Shown: piece by piece, positions 13,201-19,200 of the stretch
Numbering within the stretch: position 1 is the first letter of the stretch
Layout of the letters: each line of letters opens with the position of its first letter
Assembly (NCBI GenBank): GCA_030141605.1
Contig: JAQGDQ010000079.1
Coordinates: forward strand, 62,001-126,000
Origin: Tubiluchus corallicola
Lineage: Eukaryota; Priapulida; Priapulimorpha; Priapulimorphida; Tubiluchidae
DNA: 64,000 nucleotides
Direction: 5' to 3'
Made by a program: the position numbers and the translations under genes
Notes under the pieces: model-generated
What the model was told of the DNA's origin: nothing
What the model saw: the letters and a program-made list of their open reading frames with translations, nothing else
Databases searched by the model: none

Positions 13201-16200
13201 CTAATTTATACAGCTTGTAGACTTAATTTAAATATTAAATGCTCACAATAATAATTTTACTAAAAGTTATTTGAGTTGAAGTAAATTATGCATTTATAGT
13301 GATTTCGATTTCGCGTAATTTTTGTCTTATTGCGCAAACAAAATATTTTTATTGTTTACGATTCCATTCACGGTAAACAAAAACATTGCGCACAAAGTAC
13401 ATAAATGTCGTGGTAGTTGATATCCTTAAGAAAAATATGATATCAATTTATTTTGTTTATTAGGTATACACAATGCCTGAATATCTTAGAAAAAGATTCG
13501 GAGGGCAGCGGATACGAGTCTACTTGTCAGTTCTCGCTATTCTGCTGTCAGTTTTTACAAAAATATCAGTAAGTATATATTATGTTGACTTGTTTTCAAA
13601 TTTTATGCCCTTTTTGATACCAAAGAACGTCATTAGGCCTACCATTCTAATGATATATCCTCACCGTATAGCAATATTAGAAAACGTAATTACAAAGAAC
13701 TGTTATAATTATAGTGTATAGCTGAAAACCATTATAATTATAATTAATGAATATTGAGAACGTGTCAATTTAAAATGAAACTATACAACAATGTTAAGTG
13801 ATTCGTCTTTTAACTTGCAATATTATTAGTCTCACTCTTTTTTATATCAAATGTCTCACAGACATATTTTATATGAGAAGCCATGGGATACCTTAGTCGT
13901 TTCTTCTAATTACTAGCAGAAGCCATGAAGCCATTTATACACTACCTGTATTCTTTGTGGAATAATTACCTGTATTATACGAGATTATTACCCAGAGCTA
14001 TAAGCGTATCAGGTTAATTTTAAAAGGCTCTCATCAGAAACGTAAGTGGATGCAAACTGGGTGTGTATATAGAATAGAACACTCAGTGTACGATTAAATG
14101 TATTAAACGACTAAAAGCTTTAAGTGGCATTTACGTAGCATCCGGATGCTAAACGCCACTTTAAACGCATAGCAACGTTTAAGGCTTTTAAATCTCAATG
14201 AAATCCTTGCATTTTCTAAGTACATTAACTATACCAGCTGCACTATTGTAGACGTAAGGAAGCCTCGACAATTGTATGGAATGTATATATCTAGATAGAT
14301 AGACAGAATGTTAGATAGAAGGTTAAGACCGTTCCTACGATAAGCTTCTATTCACATAACAGATGATAGACAACCCGACACAATTAAAGATGTTCAAAAT
14401 GTTCAAATCATTTGAAAACCTTACTTCAGTGATTAACATCGCAATACAAAATTTAATGTAATTCAGCAAAACGATTGGCTAGATTAAAAGACTACGTTAT
14501 CGAGGTTAGAAAATAAAACTAATCTCACCAGTGTTGCCTAAATATATGATTAGGCCTACGCTAAATTTTGCTAGCCGTCGAATATACATTTCATAACAAA
14601 GTTTTGAAGTTGCACAAAGTAGAAAAATATAAAAAATAGTTTCTTTGTTTAAACAGGTAGATTTGTATGCCGGTGCAATATTTATTGAACAGTCTCTGAA
14701 GTGGAATGTTTACGCATCTACGGCCATATTGTTATTTGTTGCTGCTCTGTTTACAATCACAGGTATGTAAAATTAGGAAAAAACTACTAGATATAAGAAT
14801 ATAATTACGCAATCTAGGCCATTTATAATCATGTTATATACTTGTAAATGTGTTAGTTGTGTCAATGGCATTCTCGTTGCAATTTGGTCACATGATGTTC
14901 TTATAATAATTGTGCTGTAACGCTATACATAAAACGCCGGCAAATTGATTCTGGCATTCTGTGCGGTAAGTTTCCTAGCTTGGCGAAAATTGACAGGTTC
15001 GAATCTGAGGCTTAATATTAAAGTTATTTTAAGCTCGAGATTGGAGAGAAAGAGAGAGAATGAGAGAGAGCAAAAACAGAAAGAAAAAAGAGAGATAAAC
15101 ACACACACACACACACACGCAAAGAGAGAGAGAGAAAGATAGAGTCATGGTATAGGATAGGATAACAAATTTTAAATTTAATTTTTTTAAATTAAATAAT
15201 ATCGGAAATTTTCCAGGCGGTTTGACGGCTGTGATCTGGACTGATACCTTACAAACAGTTATTATGGTTATCGGGGCTTTTGCTCTCATGATATTAGGTA
15301 TGTATGTATGGCTTCGTGCAATCGTTATAACATTGTGAATTGTAATCATATGTAATTTTTTTTCTGGAACATGACATTGATCAGATAGCTTTACCGCAAA
15401 AAGTCAAAAACTGTACGTCTGATCACTTGTTAAGCATTACCAACAGGAAAAGAATTAACGGGTCCGTTGGCCATAATTTTGCAGTAGCTTACATGTTCGT
15501 TTGCCCAATACAGTGCCAAGGGTGTCCCATGTGAAATATTACCATCATTGTTTAGATACGTTTTGCAAAACGTTTTTGTATAGTATGGTGTAAAGTGGAA
15601 GCCTGCTTTCATTTCCAGGACCATTTCTAATTGACCGTGAGTCAGTGATCTGGATCTTGATTTCCGTGAGTCATGTAGGCTTGTATCATTGTTGTACGTT
15701 TTGTTTATGGGCCCTTTCAACTGTAGGCCTACCTGTTAACGCTAACCCAAAATTTACACACTTGTGTTTTGAAGATGATTGTTTAGAGTTCCTAAAGCCG
15801 CTTACAGGCTTCATGCGTATGTTGAGGCATACTTTGAAAATTAATTACAGTGATTTTTTGCAATTTCATGCAGCATTTTCAAGTGTGGGTGGTTACAGTA
15901 TAATTGGGTATGAGTACGAACATGCCATACCCAATACAACAGTTTACTCTGGTCCAGAACAACAATGCGGTTTTCCTAGTGATTATGCAATGAATTTTTT
16001 TCGCCCATTAAATGATGAAGAACTCCCATGGTTGGGAATGATATTTGGAATCACGATTATGTCTGTTTGGTACTGGTGCACCGACCAGGTATTTTAGATA
16101 TAGTTTGTTTAGTGCTGTGAATGGCTTCCTCAATACATAATATGAAAAACAACACAACTTGAACATTAATAACAATATTAGTGAATGTTCAAAAATTTAA

Positions 16201-19200
16201 CCTTAGGTAACAAAGTGAGTATTTTCAATTAGCAATCCGTTTTTTTAGTTTTAATATTTTTCCCACTCTGTAAGCTATTTTTATAATTCATATTTGGTTA
16301 CGAAAAAGTTCGCCAAAAATTCGATTTTACATTGTAAAATTTTAGCTTGTCTATTGGCAAATTTTACAATTCAAATAATTTGTTGTATTGTTACGAGCGT
16401 TTTCAGTATACGTATTTACAATGTGTCTCAACTTCAAGGTGTACGATACAATACCATATGACAAATGGAGACAAGAGTAAAAAAATATTTACTTTACTTC
16501 GCTACTTTTTCATTATTGTCTATTGCTTATTTGTCAAAAAAAACCTCACAAAAAATAAATTAGTGGAATGTTTGTGTAAAAGAAAAATTACTAAATCAAT
16601 TCAGATGCAAATCCGCGAACGTGACCATGTTTATACATGACTATGTCTGTCCAGTGTTATTATGTCATGTCTATACCTGTAGATTGTTACACTCAAGTAT
16701 GACTAATCCGTGTGTACAGTGCTTGTGACTTATTGTCACTTGATTATACCTGGTCCACAATGGTTTACTCACGCACGACTAAGCAGTTTGCACTTTTGTC
16801 ACATTTTGACTCCTATCTCAGCCCCAGAACACAGATAGCTGTTCTTCAAGTTTCGTGATTCTGGGTACTATAGTTTTAGAGTTATTTAATCTTATGCATT
16901 TTGATTCCTATTTGCAGCCCTTAAAGAATCCCTTTAAAAGCCCAAGTACGCATCTACCCCACACACTACCTAAATACTTATGAAAAAAATTTAAATTTAA
17001 CTCAAAATCCCTAGGAGGAGTTGACAATGACAAGCAATGACCTATGACAATCAAAAAACTGAACGATGTACATTGTCCCCTCTGGCCAAGGTTACCTATC
17101 ACCACACCATTTTCAAAACTTCTTCCCTAGGTGTTTGCCTTGCAAGTTTCGTGACCCTATATGTGTACTACAGTTTGGAGTTATTCAATGTTATGACTTG
17201 AACTGACATGTGTTCTGTGTATCCTTGACCCTTTAAACAAGGTCACTGGGCGCCTTACTTTGTTTGTGCCCTTACCCGAGGCGTATGCTCTGCTTTTGAA
17301 TACAAAGCCGTTTACCGTAATTTTTACATTTTGGCTTCTGCCTCGGGCCCTTAAAAACTGGCCACTCTTCAACGTATCGTTTTCAAGGCCTCTGCCATAT
17401 TTGTCTACTTTGCAAATTTCATGGCTTTTTTGTGTACTGCAGTTTTTGAGTTACTCAAAGTTATGACTCGAACTGACTTATGTCCTGTGTGTCCTGGATC
17501 GTTTGACCGTGATCACTGTTCACCACACCTTTGTCTATCTCTTATTCTGAACATATACCCTACGAGTTTCGTGATCCTAGCCCTTTACATCTGAGTGACA
17601 AAGAAATTTGCCCTCATTTTCACATTTTGGTCCTCGTCAAGAATCCCAGTTTTTTTAAACGCGGGTACACATCCGCCCTACAATACCTAAATACTTTTGA
17701 AAAAAAAATTAGCTGAAAGGAGGAGTTGAATGGCAACCGAAAAACTGGCCCATGTTCAGCGTCCTTGATCCTTTGACCGAAGTCACCGTTTACCATACCA
17801 CTTTCAAGGTCCTACGATAAATGTCGACACTGAGTGTTCCGTAGTCCTCTACATTTGCGAGTTAACATAATGGATGCCTAACACAATGATGATGATGAAA
17901 AAGTCAGCGTACTTCACGCTCACAGATAAAAATACACAAAACTCAATAAACGATTTTTTATATTTTAAAATTGATGAAACAGATTCTAACTAAGCACAGA
18001 AATGGCACAGAAAAACGCACAAAAAATACACAGAATTCCTAAATTGTCACTGATAACAGGTATGTAACAGAGAAACAAACCTGCCTACAGTGCTAACAAA
18101 TAGAACTGATGGAATATAGAACAAAATTTACTTATGCATTTTCTTATTCTTAAGATACTGGCTTTTATTAGAAATTAGGAATTTCTGTGCGTGTCAGCTG
18201 CTTTTGTTGTATACCAATGTATTTTGTTGCTATTTAGTGATTCTAATTTTGTGTTGTATTGTAATTTTTCTATGACTGCTTATGAAAAAATGTCGCGTTT
18301 CGATTGCATATTGTCCAATACGTTCATTTTTCTTGTGCTTTTCGTGGATTAATCTTATCAGCTTTGCACTCTAAAGCTCAAAAATCAAGCGCTTTCACTA
18401 ATAACGTTGACCTGTAAGCTGAGGCTTTTTTAGTAGCTAAAAAGTTTAGAATAGTATGTTCGCAGTTTGCCTTTGTAGCTTGCAGTTTTGATTATATTCA
18501 CTGCAGTTTGTTTAATATTAATTTAATTTCAAATTCAGCGTTAAGTTCATAATAGCAAAATGAGTTAGTTTCCTTCACACATTCTCACATTTTTATGTGA
18601 TTGATTTACAGCATATTTCAAACCACGCGGAATCAAGTCTTTTTCGCTCTCTTGTGTTTTTTTCCGTAAATAGAATCCATACCCGAGGACGACCTCGTAA
18701 TTTTTGCAATACCGCTGTGTTATCTGTTGTCTTTTAAAGAATCTATGTGCTTGAACGTATTTATTTGGCTTCTTTTGATTAGCATTTGTTGAAGTGGAAG
18801 GCTATCAAGCGACCATAGACCAATTTTTCCATGCCATTCCAAACACAACATTATACGGTAACACGACATGTGGCATTCCACCTGCAAATTCAATGAGTTT
18901 GGTGCGGCCAGCATCTGATGATCAGTTTCCCTGGCCAGGGGTGTTCATCGGATTAACTATAAGTTCAGTGTGGTACTGGTGTTCTGATCAGGTATTCAAG
19001 GGATTTCAACTATTTTTTTTCATTTCTATTCACAGAATATTTTTAATTTGTCGAGCAAAAATAAGTTTGATCAAATCTTGAGCTTGATGAACTCTTACAC
19101 TTCAGGTCAGAAAGTTTTTACACATGCAACCCTCCGTAATATACAAATTTAATTAAATTTTAAAGTTACAGCCGCTAATAAAGGATACATTATATTTTAG

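What the first reader, a model, noticed from the sequence alone, without database searches (positions are those of the whole stretch)
15874..18991. Mutually exclusive exons rewrite the sugar-gate segment of an SLC5 cotransporter
Exons 8a and 8b encode the same 70-72 residue segment: the extracellular loop with its sequons, then the helix ending VWYWC(T/S)DQ with the inner-gate Tyr/Trp. Both enter in phase 1 and exit in phase 0. Joining 8a to 8b shifts the frame and meets TAG at the 12th codon of 8b. Skipping both meets TAA ten codons into the read-through. Only one copy per transcript gives a full protein. They match at about half of positions, with the helix end kept and the loop diverged, so substrate affinity, glycosylation or gating may differ between the two forms. 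I know of no described SGLT-family gene with this arrangement, but I could not search.
Basis: partly seen in the sequence, partly recalled or inferred. Interest (0 to 1): 0.88.

Follow-up and report, generated by a model that had tools for sequence, protein, structure and literature searches.

The report
Swappable exons in a sugar-transporter gene
A sodium-sugar cotransporter gene, probably of an animal, carries two different versions of the exon that builds part of the sugar pocket, arranged so that only a message with exactly one of them makes a full protein; this is a familiar kind of splicing in a family where I found no earlier report of it, and RNA must still show that both versions are used.

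Summary
The window carries a complete SLC5/SGLT gene (7251-26531, +). Exons 8a (15874-16088) and 8b (18783-18991) encode the same segment: an extracellular loop plus helix M6. They are 48% identical (33 of 69), with GT-AG sites and equal phases. Either alone gives a full protein (657 or 655 aa); both or neither gives an early stop. Both match human SGLT1 about equally and keep 13 and 12 of 13 family-invariant residues. A second locus on another contig, mostly about 92% identical, has the same pair, so assembly error is unlikely. The seven other multi-exon SGLT-like loci found have one exon 8 each. The inner-gate residues do not change; the loop, one glycosylation sequon, and positions 283 and 286 do. 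Those two belong to the C6-hydroxyl pocket that differs between human SGLT1 and SGLT2. New here: a sibling SLC5 gene on the same contig has exon 12 (Q457 helix) duplicated under the same one-only frame rule, one copy with Tyr at 457. No RNA data were available, so use and exclusivity are inferred; no special intron pairing was found. A new member of a known kind, in an informative place.

The parts
7251..7358 (+). exon 1 (ATG start)
   Evidence: gene model, open frame, GT donor
11348..11419 (+). exon 2
11718..11822 (+). exon 3 (N78, H83, F101, E102 equivalents of the sugar site)
12106..12165 (+). exon 4
13464..13568 (+). exon 5
14657..14762 (+). exon 6
15217..15297 (+). exon 7, ends in phase 1
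15874..16088 (+). exon 8a: loop with one sequon, then M6 with I283, M286, T293 (human SGLT1 numbering)
   Evidence: 215 nt, AG/GT sites, open frame; with exon 9, best PDB match is SGLT1, E 6e-36
16089..18782 (+). 2694-nt intron between 8a and 8b: too long for simple steric exclusion
   Evidence: sequence; 2457 of 2697 aligned columns identical to the C1525 copy
18783..18991 (+). exon 8b: loop with two sequons, then M6 with L283, S286, S293
   Evidence: 209 nt, AG/GT sites, open frame; with exon 9, best PDB match is SGLT1, E 6e-37
19650..19785 (+). exon 9 (K321 equivalent), starts in phase 0
20426..20533 (+). exon 10
20716..20866 (+). exon 11 (sodium-site helix; Thr at 395 as in human SGLT1)
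21850..22018 (+). exon 12 (F453, Q457, T460 equivalents)
23281..23419 (+). exon 13
23799..23875 (+). exon 14
24848..24971 (+). exon 15
   Evidence: weakly conserved tail region, so this boundary is less sure
26313..26531 (+). exon 16, ends at the stop codon
   Evidence: pyrimidine-rich acceptor, frame joins exon 15, last helix aligns to human SGLT1 and SGLT2

Best explanation
A tandem exon duplication in an SGLT-type Na+/sugar cotransporter gene has produced two mutually exclusive exons, 8a and 8b. Exclusion is enforced at least by the reading frame: an mRNA with both or neither has an early stop and would be expected to be destroyed or to give a truncated protein (inferred). The two proteins share the Na+-site helix, the sugar-bonding residues and the inner gate, but differ in the extracellular loop before M6, in one N-glycosylation sequon, and in the C6-side pocket residues 283 and 286. 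The most likely effect is tuning of sugar affinity, capacity or C6 preference between tissues or stages, much as NKCC2 tunes ion affinity with its exon 4 variants. Shown: gene structure, phases, stops, signs of constraint on both copies, presence in two loci. Inferred: splicing of both, exclusivity in RNA, functional difference.
For: Complete gene and frame rule. Pfam SSF at E 2e-132 (8a form) and 7e-131 (8b form). With exon 9, 8a and 8b score 126 and 129 bits against the best SGLT1 entry (116 and 119 against 7wmv). They keep 13/13 and 12/13 residues invariant in eight other sequences. Codon positions 1/2/3 are identical at 41, 49 and 26 of 69. A second locus on C1525 has the same pair with intact sites and the same frame rule. 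Two of the three positions that give the human SGLT1/SGLT2 C6-OH pocket difference (283, 286) differ between the copies (passages of PMC10803289). The same duplication-plus-frame-rule pattern occurs in exon 12 of a sibling gene.
Against: No RNA evidence at all. On a rough matrix made from this gene's own sites, 8b has the lowest acceptor of the 16 scored (-1.1) and a donor (4.9) that beats only 4 of 14 constitutive ones. No intron-intron pairing above shuffles was found. Between the two loci 8b shows 9 non-synonymous to 2 synonymous changes; 8a shows 2 to 0, one of them W to R at a family-invariant site in the C1525 copy: possible relaxed constraint there.
Confidence: 0.8

Rival explanations
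1. One copy (more likely 8b, with the weaker acceptor) is a relic or very minor exon, and the gene in practice makes one protein.
For: 8b has the lowest acceptor score of 16 and more amino-acid change between the two loci than 8a, 9 against 2 non-synonymous changes.
Against: 8b is open, matches SGLT1 at least as well as 8a, keeps 12 of 13 invariant residues, and has intact sites in both loci. In a simple neutral simulation it stays open in 5% of 4000 runs at 0.8 substitutions per site, and neutral drift would not keep the codon-position pattern. Exons 1 and 10, which are constitutive, also changed fast between the loci.
Confidence: 0.12
2. The second exon works mainly as a poison switch: joint inclusion or skipping is used to turn expression down through nonsense-mediated decay.
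For: Both the joint and the skipped transcript have early stops.
Against: A pure poison exon has no need to keep a full SGLT segment with matching phases; both copies do.
Confidence: 0.05
3. Assembly or haplotype artefact: 8a and 8b come from two paralogous genes or alleles merged in assembly.
For: The assembly seems to hold near-duplicate contigs (C1107 and C2057 give matches at the same positions).
Against: The same two exons in the same order, with the intron between them about 91% identical, lie on a separate contig; 8a and 8b are only 48% identical, so they are not alleles; exons 3, 9, 12 and 13 of the window gene are single on its contig stretch.
Confidence: 0.03

Closest known systems
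NKCC2 (SLC12A1) exons 4B/4A/4F
   Same: A transporter gene with tandem homologous exons used one at a time, encoding a transmembrane helix plus loop that sets ion affinity (PMC7818487: passages and section 2.2.2 seen).
   Different: Another family; three exons of 32 residues; joint inclusion of 4A and 4F stays in frame there, whereas here joint inclusion is frame-shifted.
NALCN tandem exons selecting Ca2+ or Na+
   Same: Tandem exon choice changes what passes through the protein (PMC9741552, section 16 seen).
   Different: A channel, not a cotransporter; an ion filter, not a sugar pocket.
SLC25A3 and SLC39A14 mutually exclusive exons
   Same: Solute carriers named as having mutually exclusive exons (PMC5740500, passages seen).
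   Different: Other families and substrates; 'SLC5' has 0 occurrences in the main text of that paper (supplements not seen).
Human SGLT1 and SGLT2 (SLC5A1, SLC5A2)
   Same: Same family over the full length, shared sugar-site residues; the paralogue difference at 283/286 parallels the 8a/8b difference, 8b sharing L283, S287 and S293 with SGLT2 and 8a sharing T293 with SGLT1.
   Different: In humans the pocket difference lies between two genes; here two versions lie in one gene. Residue 286 itself is Met or Ser here, Leu or Val in humans.

Membership tests
SLC5 / sodium:solute symporter (SGLT type) | Full-length SSF domain | tested here: met
   PF00474, E 2e-132 and 7e-131, full profile covered; TIGR00813 471 bits for the 8b form
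SLC5 / sodium:solute symporter (SGLT type) | Closest solved structures are SGLT1/SGLT2 and sugar-site residues are present (N78, H83, E102, Y290, W291, K321, Q457) | tested here: met
   8b form against 7wmv (SGLT1) E 1e-219, 7vsi (SGLT2) E 9e-215; residues read from that alignment. The 8a form was compared only over exons 8a-9
SLC5 / sodium:solute symporter (SGLT type) | Na+-driven sugar transport | not testable with these tools
   needs expression and uptake assay
Tandem mutually exclusive exon pair | Neighbouring, homologous exons of similar length in the same reading frame (criteria in PMC5740500, passages) | tested here: met
   215 and 209 nt, 48% identical, same phases
Tandem mutually exclusive exon pair | Joint inclusion absent or frame-shifting | tested here: met
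   frame-shifting: stop at 12th codon of 8b; skipping also stops; same in C1525
Tandem mutually exclusive exon pair | Junction reads bridging each exon, none joining the two (or only frame-shifted ones) | not testable with these tools
   no RNA data held
Exclusion by competing RNA pairing (docking and selector sites) | Intronic complementarity above chance | tested here: not met
   0 of 6 pairs of flanking regions stood out: 6 to 36 of 40 shuffles as low in energy; longest Watson-Crick helix 8-11 bp, never above the maximum of 20 shuffles. Only about 500-630 nt per region were tested; short or multi-part elements, and the middle of the 8a-8b intron, could hold something
Exclusion by steric crowding or U2/U12 mismatch | Very short intervening intron, or incompatible splice-site classes | tested here: not met
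   intron of 2694 nt; all sites GT-AG and no donor fitted a simple U12 pattern; distant branch points not tested

The most novel reading that the evidence does not exclude
This lineage has at least twice, at two different exons in two SLC5 genes, turned a sugar-pocket helix into an exon choice: M6 (residues 283/286) in the window gene and M10 (F453, Q457, position 460) in a sibling gene about 110 kb away. Splicing would then set the sugar specificity of the cotransporter, single genes yielding forms that in humans need separate genes, and the Tyr457 form possibly carrying a different solute or acting as a sensor.
Probability: 0.3. Interest if true: 0.75.

Novelty: new member of a known kind. 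Interest (0 to 1): 0.55.

Why it matters
Residues 283 and 286 are part of the pocket difference that separates human SGLT1 from SGLT2, a drug-target pair. A gene that swaps these residues, the loop and a glycosylation site while holding the rest of the protein constant is a natural swap experiment: two otherwise identical transporters can be compared directly. If both forms are made, it adds a sugar-cotransporter family to the transporters tuned by tandem exon choice, and the exon 12 pair in a sibling gene suggests that this happened more than once.

Tried and rejected
Assembly artefact: rejected because C1525 carries the same pair with similar introns. Third copy of exon 8, or other doubled exons, in the window: none seen in a lenient exon-by-exon search; part of its printed output was cut, so the rows from late exon 6 to early exon 12, 8a included, were not seen, while the rows of 8b were. 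Genome-wide searches with exons 3, 8a, 8b, 9, 12, 12b and 13 found doubling within a locus only for exon 8 (C1893, C1525) and for exon 12 (the sibling gene on C1893); these searches score only the best candidates, and exons 1, 2, 4-7, 10, 11 and 14-16 were not searched genome-wide. A relic second exon 8 in the C1810 gene: nothing better than E 0.3 in the 4.6 kb around its single exon 8. RNA pairing between introns: nothing above shuffles. Dating the duplication: the exon tree puts 8a with the C1810 exon (92/89 support), but holding 8a and 8b together is not rejected (p-AU 0.072), so whether the duplication precedes or follows the split from C1810 is open. Naming the organism: not achieved; a paper search on the genome size gave nothing. 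Rfam and tRNA scans of the window: no hits. A camel paper that turned up for 'mutually exclusive exons' and SGLT mentions the two apart; its passages describe no SGLT exon pair. Structure prediction was not run; residues were placed by alignment to human SGLT1/2.
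Full report
What is there. The window (G000:C1893:62001-126000, a genome of 343.5 Mb in 2344 contigs, organism not named) holds a complete SGLT-type gene on the + strand, 7251-26531, with 17 coding exons counting 8a and 8b separately. That it is an animal is my inference from the intron-rich gene and its closeness to human SGLTs. All introns are GT-AG. The two predicted proteins are 657 aa (8a) and 655 aa (8b), both with a full SSF domain. 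The 8b form aligns from residue 18 or 8 to the last residue with human SGLT1 (7wmv, E 1e-219) and SGLT2 (7vsi, E 9e-215). The sugar-site residues N78, H83, E102, Y290, W291, K321 and Q457 are present by that alignment, and residue 395 in the sodium-site helix is Thr as in SGLT1 (Ala in SGLT2, same alignment).

The exon pair. 8a (215 nt) and 8b (209 nt) both enter in phase 1 and leave in phase 0. 8a or 8b alone gives an open frame; both together stop at the 12th codon of 8b; neither stops at the 10th codon. They are identical at 33 of 69 residues: 19 of 48 in the loop part and 14 of 21 from the PW motif on.

Both copies look constrained. With exon 9 attached, 8a and 8b score 126 and 129 bits against the best SGLT1 entry, 116 and 119 against 7wmv. 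Of 13 columns invariant in eight other sequences (six paralogous exons from this genome plus human SGLT1 and SGLT2), 8a keeps 13 and 8b 12 (the C1095 exon and the intronless distant matches were found by search but left out of this set). Codon positions 1, 2 and 3 are identical at 41, 49 and 26 of 69, as expected of coding sequence with synonymous sites near saturation. In a simple neutral simulation an exon of this sequence stays open in about 5% of 4000 runs at 0.8 substitutions per site; that alone is weak, the conserved residues are the stronger evidence.

A second locus. Contig C1525 carries a collinear copy of window 6759-21805 in eight blocks of 81-95% identity, mostly about 92%, introns included, with exons 1-11 and both 8a and 8b. 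All frames and splice sites of these exons are intact and the one-only rule holds. Against it, 8a differs by 2 non-synonymous and 0 synonymous changes and 8b by 9 and 2; the ten constitutive exons 1-7 and 9-11 together by 18.5 and 8.5, of which exons 1 and 10 hold 13.5 and 3.5. So 8b belongs with the fast exons 1 and 10, 8a with the slow ones. One 8a change is W to R at a family-invariant site, which weakens the case that the C1525 copy is fully functional. Its exons 12-16 could not be examined because the next stretch reads N, so I cannot say whether it is a full gene duplicate or part of another haplotype. The window's flanks (1-6700 and 21830-28800) have no full-length second copy in the searches made. 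Either way the pair is not an assembly accident.

Other SGLT-like loci. Genome-wide searches with 8a and 8b gave 14 matches (E up to 0.1) and 12 (E up to 0.001). Apart from C1893:62001-126000 and C1525, each of the seven multi-exon loci found (C1810, three tandem genes on C1915, C1893:206758, C215, C1095) has one exon 8. The exon tree places 8a with the C1810 exon, but the alternative with 8a and 8b together is not rejected (p-AU 0.072). The duplication is therefore older than the C1893/C1525 split but of uncertain age relative to C1810.

What the swap changes. By alignment to human SGLT1, M6 differs at seven positions: 277, 279, 280, 281, 283, 286 and 293 (8a L, M, I, F, I, M, T; 8b P, V, F, I, L, S, S). 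S287, Y290, W291, D294 and Q295 are the same in both. [quoted passage not shown] for SGLT1 also PMC9616851). Two of these three are under exon choice here. Position 286 is Met in 8a, Ser in 8b and Val in the C1525 8b. Residue 268, another human subtype determinant (passages of PMC6286348), is Pro in both copies by the alignment. 8a has one N-x-T sequon in the loop, 8b two. The gate residues and the Na+-site helix lie outside the change, so I expect tuning, not loss of transport. That is inference.

How exclusion may work. The frame rule is shown. Steric crowding is unlikely with a 2694-nt intron, and the sites are all of one class. Pairing between four flanking intron regions was no stronger than in shuffles for all six region pairs. 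On a rough matrix from this gene's own 14 constitutive sites, the 8a donor is typical (7 of 14 lower), the 8a acceptor low (3 of 14 lower), the 8b donor low (4 of 14 lower) and the 8b acceptor lowest (0 of 14 lower). This fits a regulated exon but equally a fading one.

A second pair. On the same contig, about 110 kb on and on the minus strand (C1893 about 197-218 kb), a sibling SLC5 gene has exon 12 twice: 201264-201096 (12a) and 198982-198814 (12b), each 169 nt, with GT-AG sites. Either one joins exon 11 to exon 13 in frame; both or neither gives a stop. They are identical at 27 of 56 residues, and at codon positions 1, 2 and 3 at 26, 40 and 20 of 56. By human numbering 12a has F453, Q457 and S460; 12b has T453, Y457 and G460. 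Of 15 residues invariant in six other sequences (the window gene, three C1915 genes, human SGLT1 and SGLT2), 12a keeps 13 and 12b 11 (exons 12 of C1810, C226 and C1095/C520 were not read). F453 and Q457 are named on the water path of SGLT1 and Q457 beside the bound inhibitor (passages of PMC9616851). This is the more drastic swap and supports the view that exon choice has been recruited more than once in this family here; the loss of sugar-site residues in 12b could also mean that it is failing.

Comparison with what is known. Mutually exclusive tandem exons are a well-described kind, enriched in ion-transport genes (PMC9741552, passages and section 16; PMC5740500, passages). The best functional parallel is NKCC2 exon 4, which sets ion affinity (PMC7818487, passages and one section). 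I found no report of such a pair in an SLC5 gene: the listings show none by title or abstract start (4 of 4, 25 of 101, 2 of 2, 0 of 0 and 10 of 16 papers listed), the one listed paper with repeated use of both terms does not describe one, and the main text of PMC5740500 has no 'SLC5'. These searches cover an open-access library without supplements, so absence is not proof.

Verdict. A real, well-preserved tandem exon pair, very probably mutually exclusive, in a sugar cotransporter: a new member of a known kind in an unusually informative place. Use in RNA and functional difference remain to be shown.

Noticed in passing
G000:C1893:201264-201096 and 198982-198814 (minus strand; loci L019-L020): A sibling SLC5 gene has exon 12 duplicated under the same one-only frame rule; the second copy has Tyr at the position of sugar-site Gln457.
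   Followed up: partly
G000:C1525:133258-144414 (minus strand; loci L010-L011): A second copy of exons 1-11 of the window gene, mostly about 92% identical including introns; later exons not examinable because the adjoining stretch reads N.
   Followed up: partly
G000:C1915:1160186-1190000 (loci L015-L017): Three tandem SLC5 genes, each with Phe at the place of the sugar-site Trp291 (WYFCTDQ), which may mean a different solute.
   Followed up: no
window 24054-24457: A roughly 400-bp repeat in intron 14 with 39 near-full copies listed at 91-97% identity (40 of 579 candidates were scored, so a lower bound): a young mobile-element family.
   Followed up: no
window 31883-39489, minus strand: Open frames that look like exons of fatty-acid-binding / lipocalin-type proteins. 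Of three such frames given to Pfam, one passes the cut-off (31883-32131, PF00061), one matches below it (PF14651) and one not at all.
   Followed up: no
G000:C1107, C2057, C1699, C1700, C1716: Long open frames of 532-555 aa without introns matching the symporter family; C1107 and C2057 match at the same positions. Possibly bacterial contigs in the assembly, or intronless genes.
   Followed up: no
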